Shown one piece after another: positions 5,353 to 35,316 of a stretch of 64,000 nucleotides of DNA. Source of the stretch: Limobrevibacterium gyesilva (GTDB lineage: Bacteria > Pseudomonadota > Alphaproteobacteria > Acetobacterales > Acetobacteraceae); contig NZ_JAPDNT010000008.1 of the NCBI RefSeq assembly GCF_025989185.1, forward strand, positions 62,001-126,000. Direction: 5' to 3'. The translations under genes and the position numbers were made by a program. Each line of letters begins with the position of its first letter. Positions within the stretch are counted from its first letter, which is position 1. Under the pieces are notes generated by a model that saw only the letters and a list, made by a program, of their open reading frames with translations, had not been told where the DNA came from and made no database searches.

Positions 5353-5413
5353 GGCGGCATCCTGTGCGCCGGCGGGATGCGAGGCAACCCGCGCCAGCAG
5401 GGAGAACCCGGCC

Positions 5414-11316: not shown

Positions 11317-12510
11317 CTACGGGTCGGACCTGACCCAGGCGACCCAGGCCAGCGCCAACGCGCCCAGGCCGCACATCGCCATTCCCATCACCGCGGCCAT
11401 CGGCCCGATCCAGTCGGCCAGCGCGCCCACCAGCAGCACGCCCAGCGGCCCGGTGCCGATGCACACGGTGATGAGACCCATCAGCCGCGACCGTACGGCA
11501 ACCGGTGCGCCGGTGATGATCAGCGTTGTCTGCATGTTGCTGAATCCGGCCGTGCCCAACCCGCCCAGCACCAGCACGCCGCACGCCAGCGCATATTCCG
11601 GCGCCAGCGGCATCAGCATCGCCGCCAGCATGAACATCGACGACCCGCCCAGGAACAGCAGGCGCGGCGACATGGCCGGTGTACGCATCGCCAGCGCCAG
11701 ACCGCCGATCAGCGCGCCAAGCGGCTCGGCAGCCGCCAGCAATCCCACCATGGCCGATGACACCTGGAACACCTGGCGGCCGATCGGCGCCACCAGCGCT
11801 GCATAGGAGAAGCCGAACATGTTCATCGCCACCGTCACGGCCAGCACGCTGCGCACCACCGCATCGCGCCGGGCAATGGCGAAACCTTCCGCGAGGTCGC
11901 GTGGCACATGGCCGACCGCCAGACGTTTCGTCACCTGCGCGTGGCGGATAGGTGCCAGCAGCAGCGCCGTCAGCAGCGTGAGACCGATGGAGCAGGCATA
12001 GGTGCCGCCCAGCCCGATCAGGCCGAACGCCGCGGCGCCCAGCATCGGCCCGATCATGCGCGTGAGCGCTCCGGCGAGGCTGTCCAGCGCGATCACCCGC
12101 GAGACGAAAGCGGGTGCCGCCAGTTCGCCCACCATGCGCCGGCGGGTGGACATGTCCGCGGACCAGACGCAACCGCTGACGAACGCGGCCAGCGCGATAT
12201 GCCAGGGCTCCACCACGCCGGCGCGCGCCAGCAGAAACACCGTGACGGAACTGCTGGCGACGATTGCCATGCCCACGGCCTGGATCGTCTTCCGGTTCAC
12301 GGACTCGGACAGCACGCCCGCCAGCGCCCCGAGCAGCAGCAGCGGCAGGGTCCGGGCAGCCGAAACCGCGGCCACCGCGAATCCGGAGCCGGTCTGCTCC
12401 AGTGTGAACAACGCAGCCGCCAGCATCTCCATGAAGCGCACGACGTTGTTCGTGCCGCCGATCGCCCACAGGCGTACGATATCTGGTGTTGCGATCCGCG
12501 GCACTTCCAT
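11317..12510 (-). CDS. MFS transporter (EntS-like exporter)
   Basis: A roughly 397-residue MFS protein with about twelve predicted helices. It has an ESVNRKTIQ loop between helices 2 and 3 and a MSTRRRMVGELAAP loop typical of the enterobactin-exporter-like MFS_3 group. It is probably an efflux carrier of unknown substrate. The start MEVPRIATPD is chosen because the first clear helix follows at once. In-frame starts at 12573 (ATG) and 12600 (GTG) would add a hydrophobic leader and cannot be excluded. It is isolated, with the two-hairpin repeat just beyond its 3' end. Confidence 0.82.
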   Translation of the reverse strand: MEVPRIATPDIVRLWAIGGTNNVVRFMEMLAAALFTLEQTGSGFAVAAVSAARTLPLLLLGALAGVLSESVNRKTIQAVGMAIVASSSVTVFLLARAGVVEPWHIALAAFVSGCVWSADMSTRRRMVGELAAPAFVSRVIALDSLAGALTRMIGPMLGAAAFGLIGLGGTYACSIGLTLLTALLLAPIRHAQVTKRLAVGHVPRDLAEGFAIARRDAVVRSVLAVTVAMNMFGFSYAALVAPIGRQVFQVSSAMVGLLAAAEPLGALIGGLALAMRTPAMSPRLLFLGGSSMFMLAAMLMPLAPEYALACGVLVLGGLGTAGFSNMQTTLIITGAPVAVRSRLMGLITVCIGTGPLGVLLVGALADWIGPMAAVMGMAMCGLGALALAWVAWVRSDP

Positions 12511-12911
12511 CCCCTGCACAGTCTGAGGCCTGCCTGGTGACCCGACCAGGACCAGCGCCGCCATTCCCGTCATTAAAGCGACCAATTCCCATCTCTGCAC
12601 GCAGGCATGTCGTGCCGCCGATGGCGATCGCGCGTCCCGCTACGCGAATGCGAAATGATCCTCGCGGCGCGTTGCACGCGCCGGCCACCGGCCCGCCGCG
12701 ATCCGATCGCTCTCGATCACGTCATGGGCGCCGAAATGGAATCCTGGCAGCGCATTGCCTGAACGTCTCGACAACCCGTCCGGGCGCCGCCTGCCATGTC
12801 ATTTTGATATCGTGATCACCGCCGGCGCGGCCTTGCGCGTGAAATTTCCTGCGAGGCACGTGTTTGCCGGCCCCCTTATGGCGGGGCGCCTGCCTTCGTA
12901 TGCCAGCGGGA
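12511..12911. other. Non-coding stretch, nothing recognised
   Basis: These 401 bp lie between the MFS start and the end of the DUF3096 gene. I find no convincing open frame, RNA gene, repeat or clear operator; short frames here lack ribosome sites. It presumably contains the MFS promoter. Confidence 0.5.
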
Positions 12912-13061
12912 TCAACGAATGAGATTGGGCCACAGGCCAGCAACTCCAATAAATATCAGATATGCTGCTACTATATAGTTCAAGAGACGTGGTTTGGCCA
13001 GAATGAGAACACCGGCGACGAGTGCAATAATCGGTTGCAATGATACTATATGAAGGTGCAT
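12912..13061 (-). CDS. DUF3096 small membrane protein
   Basis: A 49-residue protein that is almost entirely two hydrophobic helices: HIVSLQPIIALVAGVLIL and then LLNYIVAAYLIFIGVAGL, joined by AKPR. This pattern (PLIALIAGILIL.PRLLNYIVAIYLI.IG) is that of DUF3096, a small inner-membrane family of unknown role. GGAG lies eight bases before the ATG at 13061. An upstream in-frame start would add 13 residues not typical of the family. Confidence 0.8.
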   Translation of the reverse strand: MHLHIVSLQPIIALVAGVLILAKPRLLNYIVAAYLIFIGVAGLWPNLIR

Positions 13062-13310
13062 GCGCCCAACTCCGTGAGTTCCAGGGGGCGATATTATCAA
13101 CGATACTCAGTCGTGCCATGATCGGCGGCCGTGCCCTGAAACACATTTGATTGCCGCGGCCGGCCGTCATGATCCGGATGGCCCGGTCGCTACCCGGCCA
13201 CCTGCCGGTGCGGGCAACGCGCTGTCATATCGGTTGTCGAAGGGGCATTATTGCACTTTGACCAGGACAACATCTCAGATTAAATGAGCAAGCGGACATG
13301 GAGGTAAATA

Positions 13311-13832
13311 GTGCCCGAAAATTCCGGCTATTCGAACCTTCTGGCGCTGACCGCCGAAATCGTCTCGGCGCACGTCGCCAACAATAACGTCGCTCCGGAC
13401 AGCCTGCCCGCCCTGATCACTTCGGTGTTCCGGGCCCTCACCAATGTCGGCACTGCCCCGGCCCAGGCCGAGAAGCCCGAGCCTGCCGTTCCCCTGAAGA
13501 AGTCGGTCTTTCCCGACCACATCATCTGCCTGGAGGACGGCAAGAAGCTCAAGATGCTCAAGCGGCATCTCAAGACCGCCTACAACATGACCCCCGACCA
13601 GTATCGCGAGAAGTGGGATCTGCCCGCATCGTATCCGATGACGGCGCCGAACTACGCGAAAACGCGCTCGGCGCTGGCAAAGAAGATCGGATTGGGCAGA
13701 ACGCGCGAGCCTGCCGGCAATGCGCCCGAAGTCCAACCGGATGCCACGCCGAAGGCGCCCGCGGCCGCTCCCAAGGCGACGAGGACGAAGAGAGCCGCGC
13801 CAAAGCGGGCGGCCACGAAGAAGGCCACCTGA
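13311..13832 (+). CDS. mucR: MucR/Ros family transcriptional regulator
   Basis: A 173-residue Ros/MucR protein. Residues about 10-45 form the N-terminal oligomerisation region. Residues 68-130 carry the DNA-binding domain with KMLKRHL, TPDQYREKWDLP and YPMTAPNYAKTRSALAKKIG. The classical zinc ligands are mostly lost: CLED (Cys73, Asp76) replaces CxxC, and after His86 the second His is missing (TAY). This resembles the zinc-free Ros homologues known from Mesorhizobium. The last 40 residues form a Lys/Ala/Pro histone-H1-like tail. MucR proteins act as H-NS-like repressors of exopolysaccharide, motility and horizontally acquired genes. The GTG start follows GGAGGT. Confidence 0.9.
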   Translation: MPENSGYSNLLALTAEIVSAHVANNNVAPDSLPALITSVFRALTNVGTAPAQAEKPEPAVPLKKSVFPDHIICLEDGKKLKMLKRHLKTAYNMTPDQYREKWDLPASYPMTAPNYAKTRSALAKKIGLGRTREPAGNAPEVQPDATPKAPAAAPKATRTKRAAPKRAATKKAT

Positions 13833-13984
13833 CTCCAGGCGTGAGTATCCAGGCGCCGGTCCCGCCTGTCGGCGCGACTCACGCACGGCGCTCCGGCAAG
13901 GACCGGAATTTGCGGAACGTTCCCATGCGGTCGTGCGGCTGGCCGGGGTGAGCTATATAGCTCAAAACACCCGAGGAGATCGCC

Positions 13985-18828: not shown

Positions 18829-18840
18829 TGGTATATACCA
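18829..18840. promoter_or_regulatory. HutC/GntR-type operator, site 1
   Basis: The perfect 12-bp palindrome TGGTATATACCA contains GT-N-TA-N-AC, the consensus reported for HutC-subfamily GntR regulators. It ends 28 bases before the ATG of the binding-protein gene. The same 12 bases occur at 23270-23281 before the FrlB-like gene at almost the same spacing. Confidence 0.75.
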
Positions 18841-18868: not shown

Positions 18869-20389
18869 ATGACCATGACGCGTCGGGTGCTGCTGGGCGC
18901 CGGCCTGACTTTGCCGCTTCTGACCCGCACCGCGCGCGCTGCCCGAACCCCGGGCACGCTCACCTTCGGCCTGTCCAGCTATCCGCCCAGCCTGCTGCCG
19001 TGGAACAACACCGGCACCGCGGCGGTGACGGTGAAATTCCTGATCTTCCGCGGCCTGACCTCCTATGACGCAAAGGGCACCCTGCGCGGGGAGCTCGCGG
19101 AAAGCTGGGCGCGCGACGGCGAGGCCGGCTGGCTGTTCAAGCTGCGTGACGCCACGTTCCACAACGGCGCCAAGGTGACGGCCGACGACGTGAAATGGAC
19201 CCTGGAGCAGGTGGCCGCGGAGAAGTCCACCGCCTTCCTGCGCACCGAGTTCCAGGGCGTTGAACGCATCGAGACGCCGGATGCGAAGACCGTGCGCATC
19301 GTCATGAAGCAGCCCAACGTCATGCTGCCGGAATGGCTCGCCAGCCCGCATATGCCGATCATCGCCAAGGGATCGACCGAGGGCGGCGCCCCGCCGGTCG
19401 GCGCCGGCCCGTTCGTGCTGAAGGCGCAGGAGCGTGGCGTGTCGCTCGACCTCGTAGCCTTCGACAAATACTTCAAGCCCGGCCTGCCGAAGCTGAAAGC
19501 CATCCGCATCGTGGCTTACGCCGACGAGAATCTGCGCGTCGCCGCGTTGCAGGCCGGCGACGTGGACATCATCGAATACGTCCCCTGGCAATCCATGCAG
19601 GCCATCGAGGCCGACCCGAAGCTGAAACTGCAAACCGTCGACGGCCCGTTCATGGCGCTGAGCTTCAACGGCGCCCAGGGTCCGTTCAAGGACAAGCGGC
19701 TGCGCCAGGCCGTCGCCTACGCCATCAAGCGCGACGAGATCGTCAACGCCGCCTTCTTCGGCCGCGGCACGCCGTTGGAAGGCCTGCCCATCGCCAGCTC
19801 CAGCCCGTTCTACAATCCGGCCACGGCGCATCACTGGACCTATGACCCGGCCCGCGCGAAGGCGTTGATGGCTGAGGCCGGCGTGGCCGGCGGCTTCTCC
19901 ACGACGCTGCTGTCCACCGCCCAGTACGGCATGCACAAATCCACCGCCGAAGTGGTGCAGCAGAACCTCGCCGCCATCGGCATCCAGGTGACGCTGAACC
20001 TGCCGGACTGGGCCACGCGGGTGAACCTGGGCAATCGCGGCCAGTACGAGATCTGCGTGCAGGGCACCACCGCCGACAACAACGATTTCGACGGCACCGC
20101 GACCTTGCTGGACGGCGAACTGCCCCCCAACAACGCCCGCAGCGTAGGCATCCGCACGCCCGAGATCCACGCGCTCTATGCCAAGGGCCGCGCCGAGTTC
20201 GACCTGGCGAAGCGGCGCGTGATCTATGCCGAACTGGAGCAGCTGGCGCTCGACCAGTGCCCGATGGTCGGCCTGGCCTGGCGCGCCCAGGGCTACGCCA
20301 TGGCCCGCGACGTGCAAGGCTTCACCAATCTGCCGGGGGCGCTGAACTTCTATTCGGGACTGACGCTGGAAGACACGCATTTCGGGTAG
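18869..20389 (+). CDS. ABC transporter substrate-binding protein, family 5
   Basis: A 506-residue periplasmic solute-binding protein of the DppA/OppA family. A twin-arginine-like leader (MTMTRRVLLGAGLTLPLL, cleavage near ARA) is followed by family segments ELAESWARDG, FHNGAKVTADDVKWTLE, RLRQAVAYAIKRDEIV and YDPARAKALMAEAG. It stands apart from its permeases. The Dpp-type permease and ATPase genes at 28948-32656 lack a binding protein, and both regions lie downstream of identical TGGTATATACCA operators. I therefore infer that this is their partner. Confidence 0.93.
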   Translation: MTMTRRVLLGAGLTLPLLTRTARAARTPGTLTFGLSSYPPSLLPWNNTGTAAVTVKFLIFRGLTSYDAKGTLRGELAESWARDGEAGWLFKLRDATFHNGAKVTADDVKWTLEQVAAEKSTAFLRTEFQGVERIETPDAKTVRIVMKQPNVMLPEWLASPHMPIIAKGSTEGGAPPVGAGPFVLKAQERGVSLDLVAFDKYFKPGLPKLKAIRIVAYADENLRVAALQAGDVDIIEYVPWQSMQAIEADPKLKLQTVDGPFMALSFNGAQGPFKDKRLRQAVAYAIKRDEIVNAAFFGRGTPLEGLPIASSSPFYNPATAHHWTYDPARAKALMAEAGVAGGFSTTLLSTAQYGMHKSTAEVVQQNLAAIGIQVTLNLPDWATRVNLGNRGQYEICVQGTTADNNDFDGTATLLDGELPPNNARSVGIRTPEIHALYAKGRAEFDLAKRRVIYAELEQLALDQCPMVGLAWRAQGYAMARDVQGFTNLPGALNFYSGLTLEDTHFG

Positions 20390-21838: not shown

Positions 21839-21860
21839 GCGAACTTCGGGGGCAGGACAC
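21839..21860. repeat. Degenerate third copy of the inverted-repeat arm
   Basis: This 22-mer matches the arm at 21765-21786 at both ends (GCGAACTTC and CAGGACAC) and differs only in the central five bases (GGGGG for AGATT). It ends at the stop codon of the FAD oxidase. Confidence 0.6.
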
Positions 21861-23179
21861 TAGCTTGCCTTCTTCCACGACCCGTCGACGAATCGTGCAT
21901 ACCGATACGGATGCGGATCGACAGCCGGCGTATCACCGGCCACAAGATCGGCGGCAAGCTTGCCGGCGCCCGGCCCGATCCCGAAGCCATGCCCCGAGAA
22001 GCCGGTGGCCAGGAAGAAGCCGGGCAGGGTGGCGACCGGCGAGATCACCGGCACCGCATCGGGCGTCACGTCGATCAGCCCGCCCCAGCTTTCCGCGATC
22101 TGCATCTGCCGGAACGCGGGAAAGGCGCGGCCCAGGTTTTCGCGTGCTTCCGCCAGCGTCTTTTCCACCGGCATCGGGTCCAGCACGCGCACCTGCTCGA
22201 ACGGCGTTGTCTGATCAAGCGACCAGCTTCGCGGGATGCGCCATTCCTCCAGGAAGCGGGAGCCGATGCGCAGCCGCAACTCGCGCCAGCTCGTGCGCAG
22301 GTTGGGCAGGAAGTCGAAGAACAGGCGGAAGCTGTCGGGCGTGATATCGCTGGTGCTGGCGTTGCGCCGCGCCACCGTATAGCCGCCGTCGAGCCGCTTG
22401 CGGAAAGCGAAGTTGCCGCCGCCCGCCGTGGTTTCGGGCGCGCCGTCCAGTGGCTGGGTGCGCAGCACCGAGCCCAGCACCTTCAACTGCGGCAGATGCA
22501 GGTTCATGTTGCCGCAGAACAGCCGCGACCACGCGCCCCCCGCCAGCACCACGCTGTCGCAGTCGATGCGCCCTGTCTCCGTCACCACGCCGCTGATATG
22601 GCCGGCCTTGGTTTCCACGCCGCGCACCGCGCACCCGGTCAGGATGGTGGCACCCAGGCGCCGCGCAGCTTCGGCGATGGCAGGCGCGGCCTTGGTCGGT
22701 TCCGCGCGGCCGTCGCTGGGCGTGTGCAGCGCGCCGGCCCAGGGAACGGCGGAGCCGGGCAGCACGCGATCGATCTCGCCGGGGGCGAGCAGGCGGGAAT
22801 CGAGCTGGAACGGCCGCGCATGCTCCAGCCATTCCTCGTATTTCTCCACCTCGGCCCTGGTTTCGCACAGATAGACGATGCCGGCCTGGCGAAAACCCGT
22901 CTCCGCGCCGGTGATGTCGTTCATCCGGCGCCACAGCTTCAGGCTTTCCATCCCCAGCGGGATTTCCTTGGGGTCGCGGCCCATCACCCGCGTCCAGCCC
23001 CAATTGCGGCTGGACTGCTCGGCGCCGATGCGGCCCTTTTCGCAAAGCACCACGGGGATGCCCTTCTCGGCCAGGAACAGCGCCGTGCTGACGCCGACAA
23101 TGCCGCCGCCGATCACGACCACCGAGGTCTTGTGGGGAACGGTCTCGCTGCTCGTCACGGGATCGACGCGGGGCGCCAT
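21860..23179 (-). CDS. FAD-dependent oxidoreductase, DAO/SoxB family
   Basis: A 439-residue glycine/D-amino-acid oxidase-like flavoprotein. The N-terminal FAD motif is VVVIGGGIVGVSTALFLAEKG. A C-terminal FSGHGFGIGPGAGKLAADL closes the FAD site. It would oxidise the C-N bond of an amino acid or N-substituted amino acid. The divergent position next to the FrlB-like deglycase, across the HutC-type palindrome, suggests action on an Amadori compound or the amino acid released from it; SocD-like amadoriases belong to this fold. AGGAGAG precedes the ATG. Confidence 0.88.
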   Translation of the reverse strand: MAPRVDPVTSSETVPHKTSVVVIGGGIVGVSTALFLAEKGIPVVLCEKGRIGAEQSSRNWGWTRVMGRDPKEIPLGMESLKLWRRMNDITGAETGFRQAGIVYLCETRAEVEKYEEWLEHARPFQLDSRLLAPGEIDRVLPGSAVPWAGALHTPSDGRAEPTKAAPAIAEAARRLGATILTGCAVRGVETKAGHISGVVTETGRIDCDSVVLAGGAWSRLFCGNMNLHLPQLKVLGSVLRTQPLDGAPETTAGGGNFAFRKRLDGGYTVARRNASTSDITPDSFRLFFDFLPNLRTSWRELRLRIGSRFLEEWRIPRSWSLDQTTPFEQVRVLDPMPVEKTLAEARENLGRAFPAFRQMQIAESWGGLIDVTPDAVPVISPVATLPGFFLATGFSGHGFGIGPGAGKLAADLVAGDTPAVDPHPYRYARFVDGSWKKAS

Positions 23180-23269: not shown

Positions 23270-23281
23270 TGGTATATACCA
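23270..23281. promoter_or_regulatory. HutC/GntR-type operator, site 2
   Basis: TGGTATATACCA again, identical to 18829-18840, ends 27 bases before the ATG of the FrlB-like gene and 90 bases before the divergent FAD oxidase start. A half-site TGGTATA lies just upstream. The probable regulator (GntR/HutC family) is not encoded in the window. Confidence 0.75.
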
Positions 23282-23308: not shown

Positions 23309-24322
23309 ATGGCTTCGACGGTCGATCGCGCCGCAATCGTGGACGGATTGGCGCAGGCATCCGCCTTGCTGCCGGAGGCGATGACCCTGGGCCGCACCCT
23401 GGCACCGCATATCGACCGCATCTATCTCGTCGCCGCCGGCTCCGCCAACCGCGCGATGCTGGGCCTGCAATACTGGATCGAGCGCGACAGCCCCTCGCTG
23501 GAAGTGCGCCGCTATTTCCCCGCCGAACTGATGGCGCAGGACCCACGCCGGCTGGACCCGCGCACGCTGGTGCTGCTGGCCAGCAAGTCCGGCACCACGC
23601 CGGAGACGGTGGCCGCCGCCGAATGGCTGCGCGGCACCCCGTGCCGCACCGTCGGCTTCACCCAGCGGGAGGACAGGCCGCTCGCCGGCCTCGTCGACCA
23701 CCGCTTCATCATCGGCGAGACGGCGGAAAGCTTCACCGGCCTGTTCATGGCCATGCAGAGCCTGGTTGGCGGGCTGCTGGCGGCGAAGGACGGCTGGGCG
23801 CTCGCCGACACGCTGCTGACTTCCCTGCAGGCACTGCCCGGCGCCATCGCCGATGCGGCGGCGGCGAACGAAGCCCGCGGCGCGGCCGAGGCGCAGGCGC
23901 TGCGGGACCAGCGCGTGCTCTATCACGTCGCTTCCGGCCCCGGCTTCACCACCGCCTATGTCTTCGGCGTGTGCATCGTCATGGAGATGCTGTGGCTGCA
24001 CAGCACCCCGCTGGAGGCCGCCGAGTTCTTCCACGGCCCGTTCGAGGTGGTGGACGCGGACACGCGCCTCGTCCTGCTGCTGGGCGAGGACCCGAGCCGG
24101 CCGCTGATGGAACGCGTGGTGCGATTCTGCCGCAAGCACACGGATCATCTGATGATCTACGATTCCCGCGACTACGCCATGCCCGGCATCGACCCGGCGA
24201 TCCGCCCGATCGTCGCGCCCTATGTGCTGCAGGCCGCGCTGAAGCGGATCTCCGCGAACCTGTCCGACCTTCTCGGCAAGCCGCTGGGCGAGCGCCGCTA
24301 CATGTGGAAGACCGAGTACTAA
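23309..24322 (+). CDS. frlB: FrlB-like SIS-domain deglycase
   Basis: A 337-residue double SIS-domain protein related to fructoselysine-6-phosphate deglycase (FrlB) and the GlmS isomerase domain. Such enzymes split a 6-phosphorylated Amadori product into glucose 6-phosphate and a free amino acid. SIS features are VAAGSANRAMLG, LLASKSGTTPETVAAAEWLRG and, near residue 236, EAAEFFHGPFE with the catalytic Glu and His of the FrlB/GlmS type. It is too short for GlmS and lacks the glutaminase domain. It is followed after one base by the FrlD-like kinase, the same gene pair as in E. coli frl. The exact substrate is not known. Confidence 0.85.
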   Translation: MASTVDRAAIVDGLAQASALLPEAMTLGRTLAPHIDRIYLVAAGSANRAMLGLQYWIERDSPSLEVRRYFPAELMAQDPRRLDPRTLVLLASKSGTTPETVAAAEWLRGTPCRTVGFTQREDRPLAGLVDHRFIIGETAESFTGLFMAMQSLVGGLLAAKDGWALADTLLTSLQALPGAIADAAAANEARGAAEAQALRDQRVLYHVASGPGFTTAYVFGVCIVMEMLWLHSTPLEAAEFFHGPFEVVDADTRLVLLLGEDPSRPLMERVVRFCRKHTDHLMIYDSRDYAMPGIDPAIRPIVAPYVLQAALKRISANLSDLLGKPLGERRYMWKTEY

Positions 24323-24323
24323 G

Positions 24324-25199
24324 GTGGCGGTCCGCCTGCTCGGGCTGGGCGACAACACCGTCGACACCTATGTCGACCAGGCGATGCAGTATCCCGGCGG
24401 CAATGCCGTGAATGTCGCGGTGCTCGCACACCGGCTGGGGGCGGACACGGGCTATCTCGGCTGCCTCGGCACCGATGCGGCCGGCGACCTTCTGTTCAAT
24501 GCGCTGTCCACCGAAGGCGTGGACCTCAGCCATTGCCGGCGGATCGAAGGCGCGAATGCGCGCGCCTTGATCGCGCATCGCGACGGCGACCGCCGCTTCC
24601 TCGGATCGTCGCCGGGCGTACGCGGCCGCTATGCGCTGGCTGACGTCGACCTTGCCTATGTCGCCGGCTTCGACATCGTTCACAGCAGCATATACAGCGA
24701 GATCGAGCCCGACCTCGCGCGCATCCGCGCAGTCGCAAAACGCCTCTCGTTCGATTTCTCCGACAAATGGTCCGACGCCGTGTTCGCCCGCGTGCTGCCG
24801 CAGATCGACATCGCCTTCCTTTCCTGCCCTGGCCGCACCGACGCGGAGTGCGCCGCGGTCCTGCATGGCTGCGCCCGCTCCGGCGTGCGGCTTGCGGTGG
24901 CCACGCGGGGCGCGGATGGCGCGATGGCGCTGGCCGACGGCGTGCTGCACCGGCAGGGAATCGCGAGCGCCCCGGTCATCGACACGCTCGGCGCCGGCGA
25001 CGGCTTCATCGCCGCCTTCCTGACCGCCCGGCAGGCAGGCGGCGGCGTTCCCGCGGCCCTGGCGCACGCCGCCCGTTTTGCCGCGCGCGTCTGCGGCTGG
25101 CAGGGCGCGTTCGGCCACGGTGCGCCCTGGGCAGACGACAATGGCGTGCTAGCATCGCGCCCGGTTGCGGCGGGCGCGGTGACGCATGGCCCGAATTGA
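24324..25199 (+). CDS. frlD: FrlD-like PfkB-family sugar kinase
   Basis: A 291-residue ribokinase/PfkB-family kinase, closest by motif to fructoselysine 6-kinase (FrlD). It has GDNTVDTYVDQ, PGGNAVNVAVLAHRLGA, the diagnostic FDFSDKWSD and the anion-hole/catalytic DTLGAGDGFIAAFL with Asp near residue 226. It would phosphorylate the sugar 6-position of an imported Amadori compound, making the substrate of the preceding deglycase. The GTG start follows the deglycase stop by one base; AAGG just upstream overlaps that stop. Confidence 0.88.
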   Translation: MAVRLLGLGDNTVDTYVDQAMQYPGGNAVNVAVLAHRLGADTGYLGCLGTDAAGDLLFNALSTEGVDLSHCRRIEGANARALIAHRDGDRRFLGSSPGVRGRYALADVDLAYVAGFDIVHSSIYSEIEPDLARIRAVAKRLSFDFSDKWSDAVFARVLPQIDIAFLSCPGRTDAECAAVLHGCARSGVRLAVATRGADGAMALADGVLHRQGIASAPVIDTLGAGDGFIAAFLTARQAGGGVPAALAHAARFAARVCGWQGAFGHGAPWADDNGVLASRPVAAGAVTHGPN

Positions 25200-25242
25200 C
25201 GGGACAGTCGAAAACCAACGAGACTCATTGAGGGTTCAGCGA

Positions 25243-27294
25243 ATGGTCTGGCGTATTGGCGTGGATTCCGGCGGCACGTTCACCGATGTCTGCCTGTTCG
25301 AGCAGGAAACCGGGCGCGTCGAGGTCTGGAAGGTGCCCTCCACCCCCGACGACCCGTCACGCGGCATCGCCCAGGGCATCGAGGAAGGGATCGGCCGCGT
25401 CGGCGCCGCCCCGGCCGATGTCGGCTATTTCGGCCATGGCACCACCGTCGCCACCAACGCGCTGATCCAGCATCGCGGCGTGCGCACCGGCCTCATCACC
25501 ACCGACGGCTTCCGCGACCTGCTGGAGATCGGCCGGCAGAAGCGGCCCGAGCTGTACGACATGCAGGCCGACAAGCCAGAGACTCTGGTCAGCCGCGACC
25601 TGCGCCTGGAAGTGCCCGAGCGGGTCCGCCACGACGGAACGGTCGAAACCGCGCTGGACGAGGAGGCGTTGCGCGCCGCCGTGCGCCGCCTGCGCGCTGA
25701 CGGCGTGAAAGCGGTGGCGGTGTGCTTCCTTTACGGCTTCGTGCGCACCGACCACGAGGAAGCGGCGATGCGCATCATCGCCGAGGAGTTCCCCGAAGCC
25801 TTCGCCTGCGCCTCGCACCAGGTCGCCCCCGAGTTCCGCGAGTTCGAGCGGCTCTCCACCGCTGTCGTGAACGCCTATCTGGGCCCGGTGATGCAGGGCT
25901 ACATCCGCAAGCTCGGCGACCGCGTGCGCGGCCTCGGCGTCACCGCCACGCCGCATCTCACCCAATCCAATGGCGGCGTCATCGGCTTCGACGCGGCCGC
26001 GCGCCTGCCGGTGCGCACCGTGCTGTCGGGCCCCAGCACCGGCGTGGTCGGCGCGCAGGCGATCGGCAGGCTTGCCGGCATTCCCGACATGATCACCTTC
26101 GACATGGGCGGCACCAGCTCCGACGTGGCGCTGCTGTCCAACGGCGAATGCCGCCTGGCCAGCGAAGCGCAGGTGCACGGCTATCCCATCAAGGCGCCGA
26201 TGCTGGACATCCACACCGTGGGCGCCGGCGGCGGCTCCATCGCCTATGTCGATTCCGGCGGGCTCCTGAAAGTGGGCCCGCGCAGCGCCGGCGCCGCACC
26301 CGGCCCGGTCTGCTACGACCTCGGCAATACCGAGCCCACGGTCACCGATGCCAATGTTGTGCTGCAGACGCTGAACCCGCACTACCTGCTGGGCGGCCGC
26401 ATGAAGGTGCGCCAGGATCTGTCCAATGCCGCGATCGGGCGGCTCGCGGCGGAGCTGGGCATGGACACACTGGCGACCGCGCAGGGAATCCTGTCGGTGG
26501 TGACAGCGAACATGGCGAAGGCCATCCGCGTCATCTCGGTCCAGCGCGGCCACGATCCGCGCGACTACACGCTGGTCGCGTTCGGCGGCGCCGGCCCGCT
26601 GCATGCCGCGCGCCTGGCCAAGGAGCTGGACATCAGCCGCATCCTGGTGCCGCGCAACCCCGGCATCCTCTGCGCCGTGGGCCTGCTGCTGACCGACCTG
26701 CGCGCCGACTTCGCCTATACCCGCCTGACCACGTTGGGTGCCGCCGCCATTCCCCAGATTTCCGCGGCCTTCGACACGCTGCAGGCCCGCGCCGAGGCAT
26801 GGTTCGCGGAGGAGCATATTCCCGCCGTCGCCCGCCGCGTCACCCGCACGGTGGACATGCGCTATGCCGGCCAGAACTACGAACTCGCAGTGCCGCTGCC
26901 GGAAGGCGAGGTCAGCCAAGCCACGCTCGACGCACTGGCCGAGGGCTTCGCCGCCGCACACAAGCGCATGTACGGCTTCATCGCCGAAGGCGAGACGGTG
27001 CAGCTCGTCACCTTCCGCGTGGAGGCGGCCGGCGTGGTGCAGAAGGCCGCGTTCAAGCCGCGGCCGGACGTGGGCCCCGATCCCTCCGCCGCCCTGATCG
27101 GCAAGCGCGACGTCTGGCTGCCGGAAGCCGGCGGCTTCGTCTCCTGCCCGGTCTACGAGCGCGACAAGCTGGACTCCGGCAACCGCATCGCCGGCCCGGC
27201 CATCGTCGAGCAGATGGACGCCACCACCGTGATCCTGCCGGGCATGGTCGCGCGCGTCGAACCCTACATGAACCTGATCCTGGAGGCAGCATGA
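25243..27294 (+). CDS. hyuA: Hydantoinase/oxoprolinase subunit A (HyuA)
   Basis: A 683-residue HyuA-type protein that opens a cyclic amide (hydantoin, 5-oxoproline or related lactam) at the expense of ATP, together with HyuB. The N-terminal phosphate-binding motif is GVDSGGTFTDVCLF. Later segments are GHGTTVATNALIQ, TFDMGGTSSDVAL, HTVGAGGGSIAYVD and FGGAGPLHAARLAKEL. The ATG at 25243 follows GAGGG. Its stop overlaps hyuB (ATGA). In this operon it may act on the lactam form of a glutamine- or glutamate-derived moiety after deglycation; that is inference from context. Confidence 0.93.
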   Translation: MVWRIGVDSGGTFTDVCLFEQETGRVEVWKVPSTPDDPSRGIAQGIEEGIGRVGAAPADVGYFGHGTTVATNALIQHRGVRTGLITTDGFRDLLEIGRQKRPELYDMQADKPETLVSRDLRLEVPERVRHDGTVETALDEEALRAAVRRLRADGVKAVAVCFLYGFVRTDHEEAAMRIIAEEFPEAFACASHQVAPEFREFERLSTAVVNAYLGPVMQGYIRKLGDRVRGLGVTATPHLTQSNGGVIGFDAAARLPVRTVLSGPSTGVVGAQAIGRLAGIPDMITFDMGGTSSDVALLSNGECRLASEAQVHGYPIKAPMLDIHTVGAGGGSIAYVDSGGLLKVGPRSAGAAPGPVCYDLGNTEPTVTDANVVLQTLNPHYLLGGRMKVRQDLSNAAIGRLAAELGMDTLATAQGILSVVTANMAKAIRVISVQRGHDPRDYTLVAFGGAGPLHAARLAKELDISRILVPRNPGILCAVGLLLTDLRADFAYTRLTTLGAAAIPQISAAFDTLQARAEAWFAEEHIPAVARRVTRTVDMRYAGQNYELAVPLPEGEVSQATLDALAEGFAAAHKRMYGFIAEGETVQLVTFRVEAAGVVQKAAFKPRPDVGPDPSAALIGKRDVWLPEAGGFVSCPVYERDKLDSGNRIAGPAIVEQMDATTVILPGMVARVEPYMNLILEAA

Positions 27295-28943
27295 GCACCG
27301 CGCTCGCGCCGGCGTCCGCGCCCGCGATCGACCCCATCACCGTCGAGGTGATCGGCAGCGCCTTCGCCTCGATCGCCGAGGAGATGGGCGAGGCGCTGGT
27401 CCGCGCCAGCTATTCCACCAACATCAAGGAACGCCGCGACTGCTCCACGGCGCTGTTCGACACCGCGGGGAACACGCTGTGCCAGGCCGAGCACATCCCC
27501 ATGCACCTGGGCAGCTTCATCGGCATCCTGCCGCATATCCTCAAGCGGCATCCGCTGGAGCAGATGCGCCCCGGCGACGTGTTCGTGGGCAACGACGCCT
27601 ATGAAGGCGGCGGCACGCATCTGCCCGACATCGTGCTGGCCGAGCCGATCTTCGTCGATGGCAGCATCGTCGGCTGGGCGGTCAACACCGCGCACCACGC
27701 CGACTTCGCCGATCGCGGCCACGCCCATATCTACCAGGAAGGCCTGCGCATCCCGCCGATCCGCCTGTACCGCGCGGGCGAGCTGCAGGCCGACGTGCAG
27801 GAGCTGATCCTGCTCAACTGCCAGGTGCCGCGCGAACGCCTGTCCGACCTGCGCGCGCAGATGGCCGCCAACCGCATGGGCGTGGAGCGCATGCAGGCGC
27901 TGTGCGCGAAATACGGCAGCGCCACCGTGCTGGCCGCCGGCCGCGCGCTGCAGGACTATGCCGAACGCAAGATGCGCGCCGGCATCGCCGCCATCCCCGA
28001 CGGCACCTATCGCTTCGCCGACCGCTTCGACAATCCGGAGCTGGACGGCGAGCTCGAATTCGCCTGCGAGATCACCGTCGCCGGCGACACGATGCACCTG
28101 CATTTCGACAGCCCGCCGCAGGTGCGCGCCGGCCTCAACATGGTCTATACCGCGCTGCTTTCCACGGTCTACTACGCCGTGAAAACGGTGGTGGACCCGA
28201 CCATCCTGCCGAATGCCGGCCTCGCGCGGCCGCTGACGGTGACGGCGCCGGAAGGCACCGTGCTCAACTGCAGCCACCCCGCCGCGGTGAACGGCCGTGT
28301 CGCCACCTGCCAGCGCGTGGTCGACCTGATCCACGGCGCGCTGGCCCAGGCGGTGCCCGATCGCGTCATCGCCGCCTGCAACGGCTCCTGCGCCTCGGCC
28401 ACCTTCATCGGCACGAGCCCCAAGGACGGCAGTCTCTGGGTGTACCTGGAGACGATCGGCGGCGGCTCCGGCGCACGCGCCACCAAGGACGGGCTGGACG
28501 GCGTGCACGTCCACCTCACCAACACCTCGAACCTGCCGGCCGAGGCGCTGGAGCTGGAATACCCGCTGACCTTGCTGCGCTACGAGCTGGTGGACGGGTC
28601 CGGCGGCCCTGGCGCGCAGCGTGGCGGCATGGGGCTGCGGCGCGTCTACCGTGCCGAAGCCGAGTGCCGGCTGCGCGTCGATGGCTCGCGGCTGCGCTCG
28701 GCGCCATGGGGGCTGAACGGCGGCCTGGAAGGCGGGAAGGGCACGTTCGTCTACGGCGACGGCGTCACCCCGTTCGACCACGGCAACGGCGTGCTGAAGC
28801 CCGGCCAGATCGTCGAGATCATCACGCCTGGGGCCGGCGGCTATGGTCCGCCGTCGAAGCGCGACCCGGCCGCGGTGAAGCGCGATCTGGCGGAAGGCCG
28901 GATCGACGCCGAAACCGTGCGTCGCGTCTACGGGATGAGCTGA
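27291..28943 (+). CDS. hyuB: Hydantoinase/oxoprolinase subunit B (HyuB)
   Basis: A 550-residue HyuB-type protein, the partner of HyuA. Family segments are LVRASYSTNIKERRDCS, AEHIPMHLGSF, PGDVFVGNDAYEGGGTHLPD, NTAHHADFADRGH, ETIGGGSGARATKDG and PGAGGYGPP near the C-terminus. Its ATG overlaps the hyuA stop. Length and motif order are normal, so the pair looks functional. It is followed after four bases by the transporter permease gene. Confidence 0.94.
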   Translation: MSTALAPASAPAIDPITVEVIGSAFASIAEEMGEALVRASYSTNIKERRDCSTALFDTAGNTLCQAEHIPMHLGSFIGILPHILKRHPLEQMRPGDVFVGNDAYEGGGTHLPDIVLAEPIFVDGSIVGWAVNTAHHADFADRGHAHIYQEGLRIPPIRLYRAGELQADVQELILLNCQVPRERLSDLRAQMAANRMGVERMQALCAKYGSATVLAAGRALQDYAERKMRAGIAAIPDGTYRFADRFDNPELDGELEFACEITVAGDTMHLHFDSPPQVRAGLNMVYTALLSTVYYAVKTVVDPTILPNAGLARPLTVTAPEGTVLNCSHPAAVNGRVATCQRVVDLIHGALAQAVPDRVIAACNGSCASATFIGTSPKDGSLWVYLETIGGGSGARATKDGLDGVHVHLTNTSNLPAEALELEYPLTLLRYELVDGSGGPGAQRGGMGLRRVYRAEAECRLRVDGSRLRSAPWGLNGGLEGGKGTFVYGDGVTPFDHGNGVLKPGQIVEIITPGAGGYGPPSKRDPAAVKRDLAEGRIDAETVRRVYGMS

Positions 28944-29895: not shown

Positions 29896-31693
<1,798 letters not shown>

Positions 31694-31697
<4 letters not shown>

Positions 31698-32656
31698 ACG
31701 CGCCCCTCGTCCGCGCCGATAGCCTGACCCGGCATTTCGGCACCGCCGGCCTGTTCGGCCGCGGCCGCCCCGTGCAGGCGGTCACCGAAGTGTCGCTGTC
31801 CATCGCCCGCGGCGAGGCTGTCGGCCTCGTCGGCGAAAGCGGCTCCGGCAAGAGCACGGTCGGCCGCCTGCTGCTGGGCCTGCTGCCGGCCACCTCCGGC
31901 CGTGCGCTGTTCGACGGCACCGACCTCGCCCAGGCGAAGCCGGCCGAGCTGCGCGCCCTGCGCCGGCGCATGCAGCTGGTGTTCCAGGACCCCTATGGCA
32001 GCCTCGATCCGCGCCGCACCGTCGGCGCGCAGATCGCGGACGCGCTGGTGATCCACGGCATCGTTCCGCCCCCCGCGCGCGCCGCCCGCGTCGCCGCGTT
32101 GCTGGAACAGGTCGGCCTCGCGCCCGAGCACGCCCAGCGCTATCCGCACGAGTTCAGCGGCGGCCAGCGCCAGCGCGTCGGCATCGCCCGTGCCTTGGCG
32201 ACCGGCCCCGACTTCCTGGTGGCGGACGAGCCGGTGTCGGCGCTGGACGTCTCCGTGCAGGCGCAGGTGCTGGCGCTGCTGGCCGACCTGCGCACGCGGC
32301 TGGGGCTGGCGATGCTGTTCATCAGCCACGACCTGCCGGTGGTCCGCCATCTCTGCGACCGCGTGGCGGTGATGTATCTGGGCCGGGTCATGGAGGAGGG
32401 GCCGGTGGCCCAGGTCTTCGCGTCCCCCCGCCACCCCTACACCCGCGCGCTGCTGTCCGCCGCACCCAGCCTGCACGCCCGGCACCGGCGCACCCGGATC
32501 CTGCTGCAAGGCGAACCGCCCAGCCCGGCCGACCCGCCCTCCGGCTGCGTGTTCCGCACCCGCTGCCCCTACGCCCTGCCGGCCTGCGCCGAACAGATCC
32601 CGGCCCTGCAAGGCACCGAACACCGCGTGGCCTGCATCCGCGACGACATTGATTAG
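31694..32656 (+). CDS. ABC transporter ATPase, DppF/OppF type
   Basis: A 320-residue ATPase that forms the second nucleotide-binding subunit. It has Walker A GESGSGKS, Q-loop FQDPYGSLDPRRT, signature FSGGQRQRV, Walker B FLVADEPVSALD, H-loop ISHDLPVV and the C-terminal oligopeptide-binding cluster CVFRTRCPYALPAC. The ATG overlaps the stop of the fusion gene. It is the last gene of the operon that begins at the FrlB-like gene; a hairpin follows. Confidence 0.94.
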
Positions 32657-32806: not shown

Positions 32807-33139
32807 ATGGCCACCACGGCGATCCGCTCGGCAGCGTTGGCGATTGTCCTCGGCTCCGGGCTGCTTGGCGGCCGCTGCCTGGCCCAGCCCGCTTCCATCT
32901 CGGAAGGCTATCGGCTCGCCGCCGCGCTCTGCGCGCGCTGCCACGTGATTGTGGCAAGCGGGTCCGGCTCCTGGACCGACGCGCCTGCCTTCGAGAGTGT
33001 CGCCAACCGTCCGGACATGACCCCGGGATGGCTCGTGGCGTTCATCCAGAAGCCGCATTTGCATATGATCACCGACATCTACACGCCGGCGCAGGCGAGC
33101 AGCATCGCATCCTACATCCTGAGCCTGCGTCGGAACTGA
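32807..33139 (+). CDS. Small exported c-type cytochrome
   Basis: A 110-residue class I cytochrome c with a signal peptide (cleavage near LAQ, residues 25-27). The haem motif CARCH is at 42-46 and a likely axial Met87 is in KPHLHMITD. The tail IASYILSLR is like that of the cytochrome at 34960, so the two are probably paralogues acting in the periplasm. It is convergent with the GroEL paralogue. I see no FNR box directly upstream, unlike its neighbour. Confidence 0.88.
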   Translation: MATTAIRSAALAIVLGSGLLGGRCLAQPASISEGYRLAAALCARCHVIVASGSGSWTDAPAFESVANRPDMTPGWLVAFIQKPHLHMITDIYTPAQASSIASYILSLRRN

Positions 33140-33205: not shown

Positions 33206-34828
33206 CTAGATGCCAATCTCCGGCTCCATCTCGCGCTCCTTCCTGGGCTCGGGGATCTCCGTCATCGTCGCTTCGGTGAGCAACAGCACACTCGCCACCG
33301 ATACCGCATTCTCCAGGGCGATGCGCACCACCTTGGTCGGATCGACGATGCCGGCTTCGACCAGGTCGACATACTCCTTGCGTGCCGCATCGAAACCATA
33401 GGCTCCCTGTCCCGCCAGCATGCGCGCAACCACCACCCCGCCATCAACCGCCGAGTTCTCCGCGATCTGACGGGCCGGCCCCTCCAGCGCGCGCCGGAGA
33501 ATCTGTACCCCCGTCCGCTCGTCGCCATCGCATTTGGTTTCTTCCCTGGCGAGCACATCAACGCAGCGGAGCAATGCGAGGCCGCCGCCTGGCACGATGC
33601 CCTCGGCCACCGCGGCCTTGGTTGCGCTGATCGCGTCGTCGAGCGCCTCCTTGCGCGACTTCATCTCCGCCTCCGTCGGCGCGCCGACGCGGATCACCGC
33701 AACGCCGCCCGCAAGCTTCGCCAGCCGCTCCTGCAGCTTCTCGCGGTCATAGTCGGATGTCGTCTCCTCGATCTGCCTGCGGATCTGGTTGCACCGTCCG
33801 TCGATGTCGGCCTTCTTGCCGCCGCCGCTGACAATCGTCGTGTCCTCATTGCTGACGACCACCCGCTTCGCCGTGCCGAGCACCTCGATGGTCGCGTTCT
33901 CAAGCTTGATGCCAACCTCTTCGCAGATCATCTGGCCACCGGTAAGGCTGGCGAGGTCCTCAAGCATCGCCCTTCGGCGATCGCCGAAACCAGGCGCCTT
34001 GACCGCGACCACCTTCAGCCCGCCGCGCAGCTTGTTCACGACCAGCGTGGCGAGTGCCTCGCCCTCGACGTCTTCCGCAACAATCAGCAGCGGGCGGCCG
34101 GATCGCACGATCGCTTCCAGGAGTGGCAGCACCGGCTGCAGCCCGGACAGCTTCTTCTCATGGATCAGGATGTAGGGATCCTCGAGCTCAGCGATCATCT
34201 TCTCGGCATTAGTAATGAAATAGGGCGAGATATAGCCACGGTCGAACTGCATGCCCTCGACCACTTCCAGCGCGGTCTCCGTGGTCTTCGACTCCTCCAC
34301 GGTGATCACACCCTCGCCGCCCACCTTCTCCATGGCTTCGGCGACAAGCTCGCCGATGGCAGGATCGTTATGCGCCGAGATCGTCGCCACCTGGGCCTTC
34401 TCCTTGCGGGTCCGCACCTCGCGCGACATGGCGCGCAGCGCGTCGATCGCGGCCTTTGCCGCACGATCCAGCCCGCGCTTGAGGTCGATCGCGCTGGCGC
34501 CGGCGACCACATTGCGCACCCCGTCGGCGAAGATCGCATGCGCCAGGATCGTCGCCGTGCTGGTGCCGTCGCCCACGCTGTCGCCGGTCTTCTCGGCCGC
34601 CTGCCGCAACATCTGCGCGCCAAGATTCTCCTCGGGGTCCTTGAGGTCGAACTCCTTGGCGATCGTCACGCCGTCATTGCAGACAATCGGCGTGCCCCAA
34701 CTCTTCTGGATCAGCACCGATTTGGACTTCGGGCCCAATGTCACCCGTACTGCGTCGCAGAGCAGCGCGGCCCCGCGCAAGAGCTTTTCGCGAGCCGATG
34801 CACGGAACAGCACTTGCTTATGCGTCAC
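33206..34828 (-). CDS. groEL: GroEL chaperonin paralogue
   Basis: A 540-residue group I chaperonin. It has [13 protein letters not shown], the ATP motif [52 protein letters not shown] and [13 protein letters not shown]. The usual C-terminal GGM repeats are absent; it ends in acidic EPEIGI. No groES lies beside it, so it is likely a secondary chaperonin that uses a GroES made elsewhere. The GTG start follows GGAGG at eight bases. An FNR/FixK box sits about 105 bp upstream of the start, pointing to low-oxygen expression with the flanking cytochrome and dehydrogenase genes. Confidence 0.93.
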
Positions 34829-34926
34829 GGAATGGCCTCCTCTCCCACGCGTCGCAGCGCTGCGCCGGCGATCCAAGCCTGCGCCATCATTGTTGATTTA
34901 CATATCACCGACCGGCTGCGCCGGCA

Positions 34927-34959: not shown

Positions 34960-35316
34960 TCACGCGTGGCGCAGGCTGAGGATATAGGCGATGAGATCGT
35001 CGATCTCGCCCGGCTTGAGGATCAGATTGGGCATCCGGCTATGCGGCGTCTGCAGAAACGCCCGCAGCGCCAGCGGTGTGGTCGACGGCATGCGCGCGAT
35101 GGCGGCAAATGTCGGAACGTCATTGCCGACACGCTGCGGCGTCGGGCCGATGATGTGGCACGTGCTGCACGACGCCTCGGCCAGGCGCCGGCCCGCCGCA
35201 ACGTCGCCGGTCTCCTGACAGGCCGAGGGCCGCGCGAAGGCGGTCAGCAGGATTGCGCTCAGCAGCTGCATGCCGCGCAACCCGGTCCGGCGACCGCTAT
35301 CCGCGCTGTGCGTCAT
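34960..35316 (-). CDS. Small exported c-type cytochrome
   Basis: A 118-residue class I cytochrome c. An export leader (hydrophobic MQLLSAILLTAFARP, cleavage near SACQ) is followed by CSTCH at 50-54 and axial Met95 in PHSRMPNLI, ending IAYILSLRHA. It resembles the cytochrome at 32807. It may be cotranscribed with the downstream GroEL paralogue, and it shares a divergent promoter region, with an FNR/FixK box, with the acyl-CoA ligase operon. The role is probably electron transfer under low oxygen. Confidence 0.88.
   Translation of the reverse strand: MTHSADSGRRTGLRGMQLLSAILLTAFARPSACQETGDVAAGRRLAEASCSTCHIIGPTPQRVGNDVPTFAAIARMPSTTPLALRAFLQTPHSRMPNLILKPGEIDDLIAYILSLRHA

What the first reader, a model, noticed from the sequence alone, without database searches (positions are those of the whole stretch)
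23309..28943. FrlB/FrlD combined with HyuA/HyuB: possible degradation of glycated lactam-forming amino acids
Known frl operons do not normally carry an ATP-dependent lactam hydrolase. Deglycation of a fructosyl-glutamine or pyroglutamate-type compound could release a cyclic amide for HyuAB to open, and the divergent DAO-family flavoprotein could oxidise a variant substrate. This would be a new branch of Amadori or opine-like catabolism.
Basis: inference. Interest (0 to 1): 0.62.

Follow-up and report, generated by a model that had tools for sequence, protein, structure and literature searches.

The report
Operon for degrading sugar-capped pyroglutamate
A bacterium carries one co-regulated gene set that looks built to import a sugar attached to a ring-closed glutamate, open the ring with ATP and then split off the sugar, joining two breakdown routes known separately from plant-tumour opines and from browned (Maillard) sugar-amino acids.

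Summary
The genes are real: FrlB (SIS deglycase), FrlD (PfkB kinase), HyuA, HyuB and ABC-transporter genes form one operon, with a divergent DAO flavoprotein and a binding-protein gene nearby. The linkage is not chance: 25 of 80 FrlB relatives retrieved have HyuAB close by (23 directly behind FrlD), all in one FrlB clade; two Sphingobium-type loci use a different HyuAB under the same operator. The palindrome TGGTATATACCA occurs exactly twice in the 5.37 Mb assembly, before frlB and before the binding-protein gene. HyuA falls in the clade of the Ti-plasmid agropinic-acid genes (HyuA 68%, HyuB 70% identical), the DAO is AgaE-like (61%), and the binding protein's best solved relative is AgaA. Agropinic acid is the lactam of N-mannityl-glutamate (recalled). 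Best reading: a lactam of a glycated glutamate or glutamine, most likely N-fructosyl-pyroglutamate, is imported, opened by HyuAB, then deglycated by FrlD/FrlB and/or AgaE. No activity was measured and the substrate is inferred. New variant of a known kind.

The parts
18829..18840 (.). palindromic operator TGGTATATACCA, 28 bp before the binding-protein gene
   Evidence: one of exactly 2 sites in the assembly; spacing
18869..20389 (+). AgaA-like solute-binding protein (SBP_bac_5) of the ABC importer
   Evidence: Pfam; best PDB relative 6HLX AgaA 361.6 bits, next 148; 41% identical to Ti-plasmid RS365, which holds the 6HLX fragment
21860..23179 (-). AgaE-like FAD enzyme (DAO family), divergent
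   Evidence: Pfam DAO; 60.7% identical to the FAD enzyme beside HyuAB on the Ti plasmid; best PDB relative L-amino acid deaminase 5FJM
23270..23281 (.). second palindromic operator, 27 bp before frlB, 91 bp from the DAO start
   Evidence: kept with 0-1 mismatch in 23 of 25 HyuAB-positive relatives
23309..24322 (+). FrlB-like SIS deglycase
   Evidence: Pfam SIS, 3EUA 186 bits, E226 and H242 kept in all rows of A1 and A2
24324..25199 (+). FrlD-like PfkB kinase
   Evidence: Pfam PfkB; NCBIfam fructoselysine 6-kinase 204.9 bits, below cut-off; GAGD motif
25243..27294 (+). HyuA / AgaF-type ATP-dependent lactamase subunit (longest frame from 25186)
   Evidence: Pfam; 68.1% identical to the Ti-plasmid HyuA; AgaF clade in tree
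27291..28943 (+). HyuB / AgaG-type lactamase subunit
   Evidence: Pfam; 70.1% identical to the Ti-plasmid HyuB
28948..29895 (+). ABC permease
   Evidence: Pfam BPD_transp_1; 44.7% identical to a permease beside Ti-plasmid AgaA
29895..31697 (+). fused ABC permease and ATPase
   Evidence: Pfam BPD_transp_1 + ABC_tran
31685..32656 (+). second ABC ATPase
   Evidence: Pfam ABC_tran + oligo_HPY

Best explanation
The cluster is a regulated catabolic pathway for a lactam of a glycated glutamate or glutamine, most likely N-(1-deoxyfructosyl)-pyroglutamate. Inferred steps: (1) an AgaA-type ABC importer takes up the intact lactam; (2) HyuA/HyuB open the pyroglutamate ring with ATP to give fructosyl-glutamate; (3) FrlD phosphorylates the sugar at C6, before or after step 2; (4) FrlB splits the 6-phosphate into glucose 6-phosphate and glutamate; (5) the AgaE-like flavoprotein is an alternative, oxidative deglycation of the opened compound. 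A GntR/UTRA regulator acting at TGGTATATACCA controls importer and enzymes together. Shown here by sequence: gene identity, conserved linkage, clade membership of HyuA, shared operator sequence. Inferred: substrate, order, activities, binding of regulator to operator.
For: Linkage: HyuAB near 25 of 80 FrlB relatives, 23 directly downstream of FrlD. One FrlB clade of 31 rows (30 distinct loci, since L159/G428 is the same contig as L032): 25 distinct loci with AgaF/AgaG-type HyuAB (in Terrarubrum about 10 kb downstream), 2 with another HyuAB, 2 cut short, 1 with none. Non-orthologous replacement: L044/L047 carry a 42-43% identical HyuA with the operator (at most 1 mismatch) before both frlB and hyuA. 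In Pseudoxanthomonas and Luteimonas the linked HyuA is the only match at E <= 1e-50 in the genome. Opine kinship: HyuA 68%, HyuB 70%, DAO 61% to the Ti-plasmid trio; HyuA clade SH-aLRT 99; binding protein's best solved relative AgaA 6HLX. Operator only twice in the assembly, control 0. A SIS/PfkB pair on pAoF64/95 maps to mocD/mocE (my mapping), and its authors state that a mocD mutant cannot degrade deoxyfructosyl-glutamine (PMC6341043, passages). N-fructosyl-pyroglutamate was assigned by LC-MS in honey (PMC12114437, passages).
Against: No activity data. The role of AgaF/AgaG in opening agropinic acid is recalled (Lyi et al. 1999, not held). G285 has a 73/75% identical HyuAB with a like importer but no FrlB or AgaE match at the cut-offs used. 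L035 has FrlB, FrlD and AgaE but no HyuAB in its 6.2 kb downstream. 9 of 25 HyuAB-positive loci show no AgaE-like gene in the flank held. In L031 and L054 the hyuA frame holds one stop. The operator is not specific to HyuAB loci: 9 of 55 other FrlB loci have it too. The fructosyl rather than mannityl sugar rests on FrlBD and on the lack, in the 64 kb window only, of the SDR that stands beside AgaE elsewhere; the rest of the genome was not searched for it, and an SDR 33% identical to a Ti-plasmid SDR lies near the GntR gene. FrlB and FrlD fall below the NCBIfam cut-offs. In 15 stretches fetched around FrlB-like genes of the order of Neobacillus (16 of the 20 places) no HyuAB was found, so the Priestia plasmid is alone there.
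Confidence: 0.6

Rival explanations
1. The substrate is agropinic acid or another mannityl opine itself: HyuAB and AgaE form the route, and FrlBD takes care of a fructosyl intermediate.
For: AgaA-, AgaE-, AgaF- and AgaG-like genes are all present. 8 of 11 Bosea-type loci (L026-L029, L033, L037, L045, L071) and Terrarubrum also carry the SDR that stands beside AgaE in opine clusters and could oxidise mannityl to fructosyl (role inferred).
Against: No such SDR in the window at 1e-10. The Xanthomonadaceae and sphingomonad loci have FrlBD with HyuAB but, in the flanks held, neither that SDR nor an AgaE-like nor an AgaA-like gene. Agropinic acid is a tumour compound of narrow occurrence (recalled).
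Confidence: 0.19
2. One reading: FrlD/FrlB deglycate first and HyuAB then opens the free lactam (pyroglutamate or a hydantoin).
For: Same gene content; the HyuAB family includes 5-oxoprolinases (recalled; Pfam names).
Against: Deglycation at an amide nitrogen is chemically unfavourable (established chemistry). HyuA sits with AgaF in the tree and scores 954 bits against the Ti protein (blastp) versus 430-541 bits against the solved caprolactamase and N-methylhydantoinase (phmmer; different programs).
Confidence: 0.1
3. Two pathways share one regulon: FrlBD handles open Amadori compounds, HyuAB an unrelated hydantoin or lactam from the same habitat.
For: G285 has HyuAB and importer without FrlBD; L035 has FrlBD without HyuAB.
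Against: Operon order FrlB-FrlD-HyuA-HyuB with short gaps, a different HyuAB lineage under the same operator in L044/L047, and a single HyuA match in two genomes.
Confidence: 0.11

Closest known systems
Agropinic/mannopinic-acid catabolic region of octopine-type Ti plasmids (AgaA-G; gene names other than AgaA recalled)
   Same: binding protein AgaA-like, DAO AgaE-like, HyuA in the AgaF clade, HyuB 70% identical
   Different: the Ti trio is FAD-HyuA-HyuB with no FrlB/FrlD beside it; in the window the FAD gene is divergent and FrlB-FrlD precede HyuA-HyuB
Mannopine genes mocC/mocD/mocE (pAoF64/95)
   Same: mocD = SIS and mocE = PfkB by my mapping, for deoxyfructosyl-glutamine; FrlB 34%, FrlD 44% identical
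   Different: other importer type and no HyuAB in that operon
frl operon of B. subtilis (frlBONMD)
   Same: deglycase plus kinase pair; FrlB closest in PDB to 3EUA; the B. subtilis enzymes prefer alpha-glycated amino acids (PMC12632257, passages)
   Different: oligopeptide-type importer, HyuAB and AgaE-like gene in the window; 'hydantoinase' occurs in none of the 15 papers listed
Salmonella fra locus (fructose-asparagine)
   Same: an extra amide-cleaving enzyme in a frl-like locus tells which Amadori compound is used: the asparaginase led to F-Asn (PMC4072780, passages)
   Different: asparaginase instead of an ATP-dependent lactamase; other transporter
Caprolactamase CapAB / N-methylhydantoinase
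   Same: same HyuA/HyuB families
   Different: HyuA only 430-541 bits to the solved ones; below the NCBIfam caprolactamase cut-offs

Membership tests
FrlB (fructosamine-6-phosphate deglycase) | SIS domain over the cut-off and closest solved relative a deglycase | tested here: met
   Pfam SIS 32.6 vs 25 bits; 3EUA 185.8 bits
FrlB (fructosamine-6-phosphate deglycase) | catalytic Glu and His (roles recalled) | tested here: met
   E226 and H242 invariant in A1 and A2, 6 rows each; a solved variant of a relative carries Ala at the Glu
FrlB (fructosamine-6-phosphate deglycase) | NCBIfam equivalog for fructoselysine 6-phosphate deglycase | tested here: not met
   111.4 vs 430 bits: not the E. coli-type fructoselysine enzyme
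FrlD (fructoselysine 6-kinase) | NCBIfam equivalog cut-off | tested here: not met
   204.9 vs 247 bits, best model; called FrlD-like only
AgaF/AgaG (opine-type HyuA/HyuB) | HyuA in one clade with the Ti-plasmid protein, apart from own-genome paralogues | tested here: met
   clade of 33 rows, SH-aLRT 99; 7 of the own genome's 10 paralogues were in the tree, all outside (quick tree). HyuB by identity only, no tree
AgaF/AgaG (opine-type HyuA/HyuB) | opens the lactam of an N-glycosyl pyroglutamate | not testable with these tools
   needs an assay
AgaE (fructosyl amino acid oxidase-like) | close sequence and beside HyuAB | tested here: met
   60.7% to the Ti FAD protein
AgaE (fructosyl amino acid oxidase-like) | fructosyl amino acid oxidase activity (title of Hirokawa & Kajiyama 2002, seen in a reference list) | not testable with these tools
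   paper not held
AgaA (agropinic-acid binding protein) | closest solved relative AgaA by a wide margin | tested here: met
   6HLX 361.6 bits, next 148; a 6HLX fragment is identical to Ti RS365
AgaA (agropinic-acid binding protein) | binding of agropinic acid | not testable with these tools
   pocket residues were not compared
Mannityl-opine catabolic system | SDR beside AgaE (or MocC) that could make the fructosyl from the mannityl compound | tested here: not met
   no hit in the 64 kb window at 1e-10; rest of the genome not searched
Caprolactamase CapAB | NCBIfam equivalog cut-offs | tested here: not met
   CapA 599.6 and CapB 263.9 vs 1000 bits
frl operon (B. subtilis type) | FrlONM-type importer beside frlB/frlD | tested here: not met
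   importer is of the SBP_bac_5/oligopeptide type

The most novel reading that the evidence does not exclude
Lactam Amadori compounds such as N-fructosyl-pyroglutamate are a common plant- and decay-derived nutrient with a dedicated bacterial pathway (AgaA-type importer, ATP-dependent HyuAB, FrlD/FrlB), and the agropinic-acid genes of Ti plasmids were recruited from this older pathway, so that the opine is a reduced mimic of a natural Amadori lactam.
Probability: 0.3. Interest if true: 0.75.

Novelty: new variant of a known kind. Interest (0 to 1): 0.58.

Why it matters
It would give a gene set for the catabolism of lactam-form Amadori compounds, explain what a clade of HyuAB 'hydantoinases' does, and offer a natural pathway from which opine catabolism could have come. 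It makes one substrate (N-fructosyl-pyroglutamate) directly testable, with culturable species such as Bosea, Luteimonas or Pseudoxanthomonas that carry the module.

Tried and rejected
Chance neighbours: rejected. HyuAB as caprolactamase: below cut-offs, and HyuA far below its score to the Ti protein. DAO as a fungal-type fructosyl oxidase: only weak PDB matches; the closest solved one is an L-amino acid deaminase. My first label 'Moa' for the Ti binding protein RS365 was wrong: its sequence holds the 6HLX (AgaA) fragment; the label should be read so. Gamma-glutamyltransferase (GGT) as proof of a glutamyl substrate: GGT lies near 4 of 25 HyuAB-positive and 0 of 50 negative FrlB loci (5 cut loci left out, Fisher p 0.010, relatedness not corrected) and near Terrarubrum's, but the own genome alone has 13 GGT matches, about 11 genes, and three of the four share one arrangement, so it is only suggestive. 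Bacillota as a second centre of the linkage: none in the 15 stretches fetched. A fused 5-oxoprolinase in the own genome that would make HyuAB redundant: the frame in L001 did not settle it and the claim was dropped. The HyuA tree is a quick one, and its FrlBD-linked clade (SH-aLRT 95) rests on rows found through FrlB or beside it; G285 is not in the tree and may break its exclusiveness. For L039 the binding-protein spacing comes from a 53-residue match at the locus end and was left out of that count.

Papers: passages of PMC6341043, PMC8262997, PMC12114437, PMC12632257, PMC4072780, PMC6683767, PMC5132102 and PMC4231840 were seen; of PMC9609667 one reference; of PMC7312611 no passage. Other papers were seen as search listings. 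Lyi 1999 is recalled; Kim & Farrand 1996, Hirokawa & Kajiyama 2002 and Marty 2019 were seen in reference lists only.
Full report
What is there. The finding's coordinates hold four intact genes in one direction: a FrlB-like SIS protein, a FrlD-like PfkB kinase, HyuA and HyuB. HyuA most likely starts at 25243, where the similarity to its relatives begins; the gaps are then 1, 43 and -4 bp. The operon runs on through a permease, a fused permease-ATPase and a second ATPase to 32656. The DAO flavoprotein is divergent at 21860-23179, and a family-5 solute-binding protein lies at 18869-20389, beyond a DUF1330 and a CAP-domain gene.

Is the linkage real. A search of the species genomes with a FrlB alignment found 396 relatives and kept the best 80. 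HyuA and HyuB both lie within the held flanks in 25 of 80: 23 have HyuA 0.8-1.0 kb behind FrlB, just after FrlD, and 2 have a 42-43% identical HyuA about 5.9 kb upstream of the end of FrlB; 50 have none and 5 have under 3.5 kb downstream. In 2 of the 23 (L031, L054) the hyuA frame holds one stop. Taxa are Rhodospirillales and Acetobacteraceae, Bosea, Methylobacteriaceae, sphingomonads and Xanthomonadaceae, several of them metagenome assemblies. On a FrlB tree of 96 rows one clade of 31 (SH-aLRT 100) holds 26 rows with AgaF-type HyuAB (the window, Terrarubrum, the 23, and L159, which is the same contig as L032), both Sphingobium-type ones, 2 cut contigs and 1 without (L035); outside it only the Priestia plasmid pBEH4 has HyuAB, at 44-45% identity. 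In Terrarubrum HyuAB lies about 10 kb downstream on the same strand. FrlB is rare: at the cut-offs used, 1 of 200 genomes of the order (the own one) and 4 of 385 of the class. In a search of 385 class genomes for HyuA, three have a match of 70% or more; two (the own one and G428, which is L032's contig) have FrlB and FrlD beside it and one (G285) has not. In the ten genomes checked with the linked pair the linked HyuA is 70-100% identical and the next best HyuA at most 48%; in Pseudoxanthomonas and Luteimonas there is no other match at E <= 1e-50.

One regulon. TGGTATATACCA lies 28 bp before the binding-protein gene and 27 bp before frlB, and nowhere else in the 5.37 Mb held; the reversed control pattern gave 0. 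Within 160 bp before frlB it is kept with at most one mismatch in 23 of 25 HyuAB-positive loci and in 9 of 55 others, so it marks FrlB regulation more widely; letter-shuffled upstream stretches reach this in 0.02%. Before the binding-protein gene it is kept within 200 bp in 13 of 15 loci with such a gene (L039, a partial match, left out). In L044 and L047 it stands, with at most one mismatch, before frlB and also before the non-orthologous hyuA. A GntR gene lies beside frlB in 23 of the 25 HyuAB-positive loci (not in L021 and L024, whose layout is the window's). The own genome has one orthologue of it, 64% identical, on the same contig about 74 kb away (next best 27%), with GntR and UTRA domains. 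That it binds the palindrome is inferred.

What the parts resemble. The closest described neighbours are not frl operons but opine genes. On the octopine-type Ti plasmid NC_002377 an FAD enzyme, HyuA and HyuB stand in a row between two peptide-type ABC importers. The window's proteins are 60.7, 68.1 and 70.1% identical to them. Their names AgaE, AgaF and AgaG, and the role of AgaF/AgaG in opening agropinic acid, are recalled (Lyi et al. 1999, not held). The binding protein's best solved relative is 6HLX, named AgaA, at 361.6 bits against 148 for the next, and a fragment of 6HLX is identical to the Ti binding protein that is 41% identical to the window's. In the HyuA tree the 25 FrlBD-linked rows form one clade (SH-aLRT 95) within a clade of 33 with the opine-plasmid-type proteins (99); seven own-genome paralogues, the Priestia and the Sphingobium-type HyuA lie outside (quick tree, long branches warned of). 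FrlB and FrlD also have opine counterparts: on pAoF64/95 a SIS gene and then a PfkB gene end 498 bp before a LuxR-like gene, and the paper places tmsP about 500 nt behind mocE, the last conserved gene of the mannopine transport and catabolism operon (PMC6341043). So mocD is the SIS and mocE the PfkB gene by my mapping; the authors state that a mocD mutant cannot further degrade deoxyfructosyl-glutamine.

How it most likely works. Agropinic acid is the lactam of N-mannityl-glutamate (recalled). An importer of the AgaA type and a lactamase of the AgaF/AgaG type therefore point to an N-glycosyl pyroglutamate. FrlD and FrlB point to a fructosyl rather than a mannityl sugar, and the window shows no SDR of the kind that stands beside AgaE in opine clusters; that SDR's role is inferred, the rest of the genome was not searched for it, and an SDR 33% identical to a Ti-plasmid SDR lies near the GntR gene. 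N-fructosyl-pyroglutamate fits both clues; it was assigned by LC-MS in buckwheat honey (PMC12114437), and 36 papers hold such a name, the 15 listed being mostly about plant, food and herbal extracts. Because FrlB needs an amine nitrogen, ring opening should come before deglycation (chemical inference). The AgaE-like protein could oxidise the opened compound; [quoted passage not shown] The smaller version in Xanthomonadaceae and sphingomonads shows, in the flanks held, no AgaE and no AgaA-type importer, but TonB-receptor and MFS-transporter genes and, in three loci, GGT genes. The logic is that of the Salmonella fra locus, where an asparaginase in a frl-like operon led to fructose-asparagine (PMC4072780).

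Against it. No activity is measured. G285 has HyuAB and importer without a FrlB or AgaE match; L035 has FrlB, FrlD and AgaE without HyuAB in 6.2 kb downstream; 9 of 25 positive loci show no AgaE-like gene in the flank held. The NCBIfam cut-offs for fructoselysine-6-phosphate deglycase, fructoselysine 6-kinase and caprolactamase are not met. No HyuAB was found in 15 stretches around FrlB-like genes of the order of Neobacillus. The 80 loci are related, so their number is not a number of independent events: on the FrlB tree the presence of HyuAB needs 3 changes.

Novelty. In the held library, searches for hydantoinase with fructosamine and deglycase (20 of 40 listed), with opine terms (6 of 6) and with frlB, fructoselysine and Amadori (15 of 35) listed no paper that counts hydantoinase together with fructosamine-pathway terms; most subscription papers are not held. 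I rate it a new variant of a known kind: known enzyme families, an unreported combination as far as these searches reach, and a predicted substrate class of its own.

Noticed in passing
G000:C78:10531-11262 (L198:8520-9293, -): GntR/UTRA regulator 64% identical to the one beside frlB in Terrarubrum, next to an amidase gene; the likely but unlinked regulator of the window's regulon.
   Followed up: partly
G000:C1:683548-684843 (L199:7549-8877): A second AgaE-like protein (66%) among oligopeptide-type ABC transporter genes.
   Followed up: partly
L167, L170, L187: HyuA 49-57% identical to the window's lie, with HyuB, beside histidine-degradation genes on Sodalis pHS1, on pRi1724 and in G254; perhaps for lactams of histidine compounds or of mikimopine.
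   Followed up: no
L015:10049-17007 (Priestia filamentosa pBEH4): SIS-HyuA-HyuB-PfkB-GntR behind two MFS genes on a Bacillota plasmid, with HyuAB of another lineage: a separate joining of the two modules.
   Followed up: partly
L186 (G285:C220:1-20000): HyuAB (73/75%) with an AgaA-like importer but no FrlBD or AgaE; a pentapeptide-repeat and a D-2-hydroxyacid dehydrogenase gene upstream of it.
   Followed up: partly
L022, L023, L038, L028, L010, L164: Gamma-glutamyltransferase genes near the module or near AgaF-type HyuAB.
   Followed up: partly
L031 (hyuA 11808-13874) and L054 (hyuA 5057-7147): One stop inside the hyuA frame in each; assembly error or broken gene, not settled.
   Followed up: no
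window 32807-33139 and 34960-35316: Two small CxxCH-containing proteins without a Pfam match on either side of a GroEL-like gene at 33206-34876.
   Followed up: no
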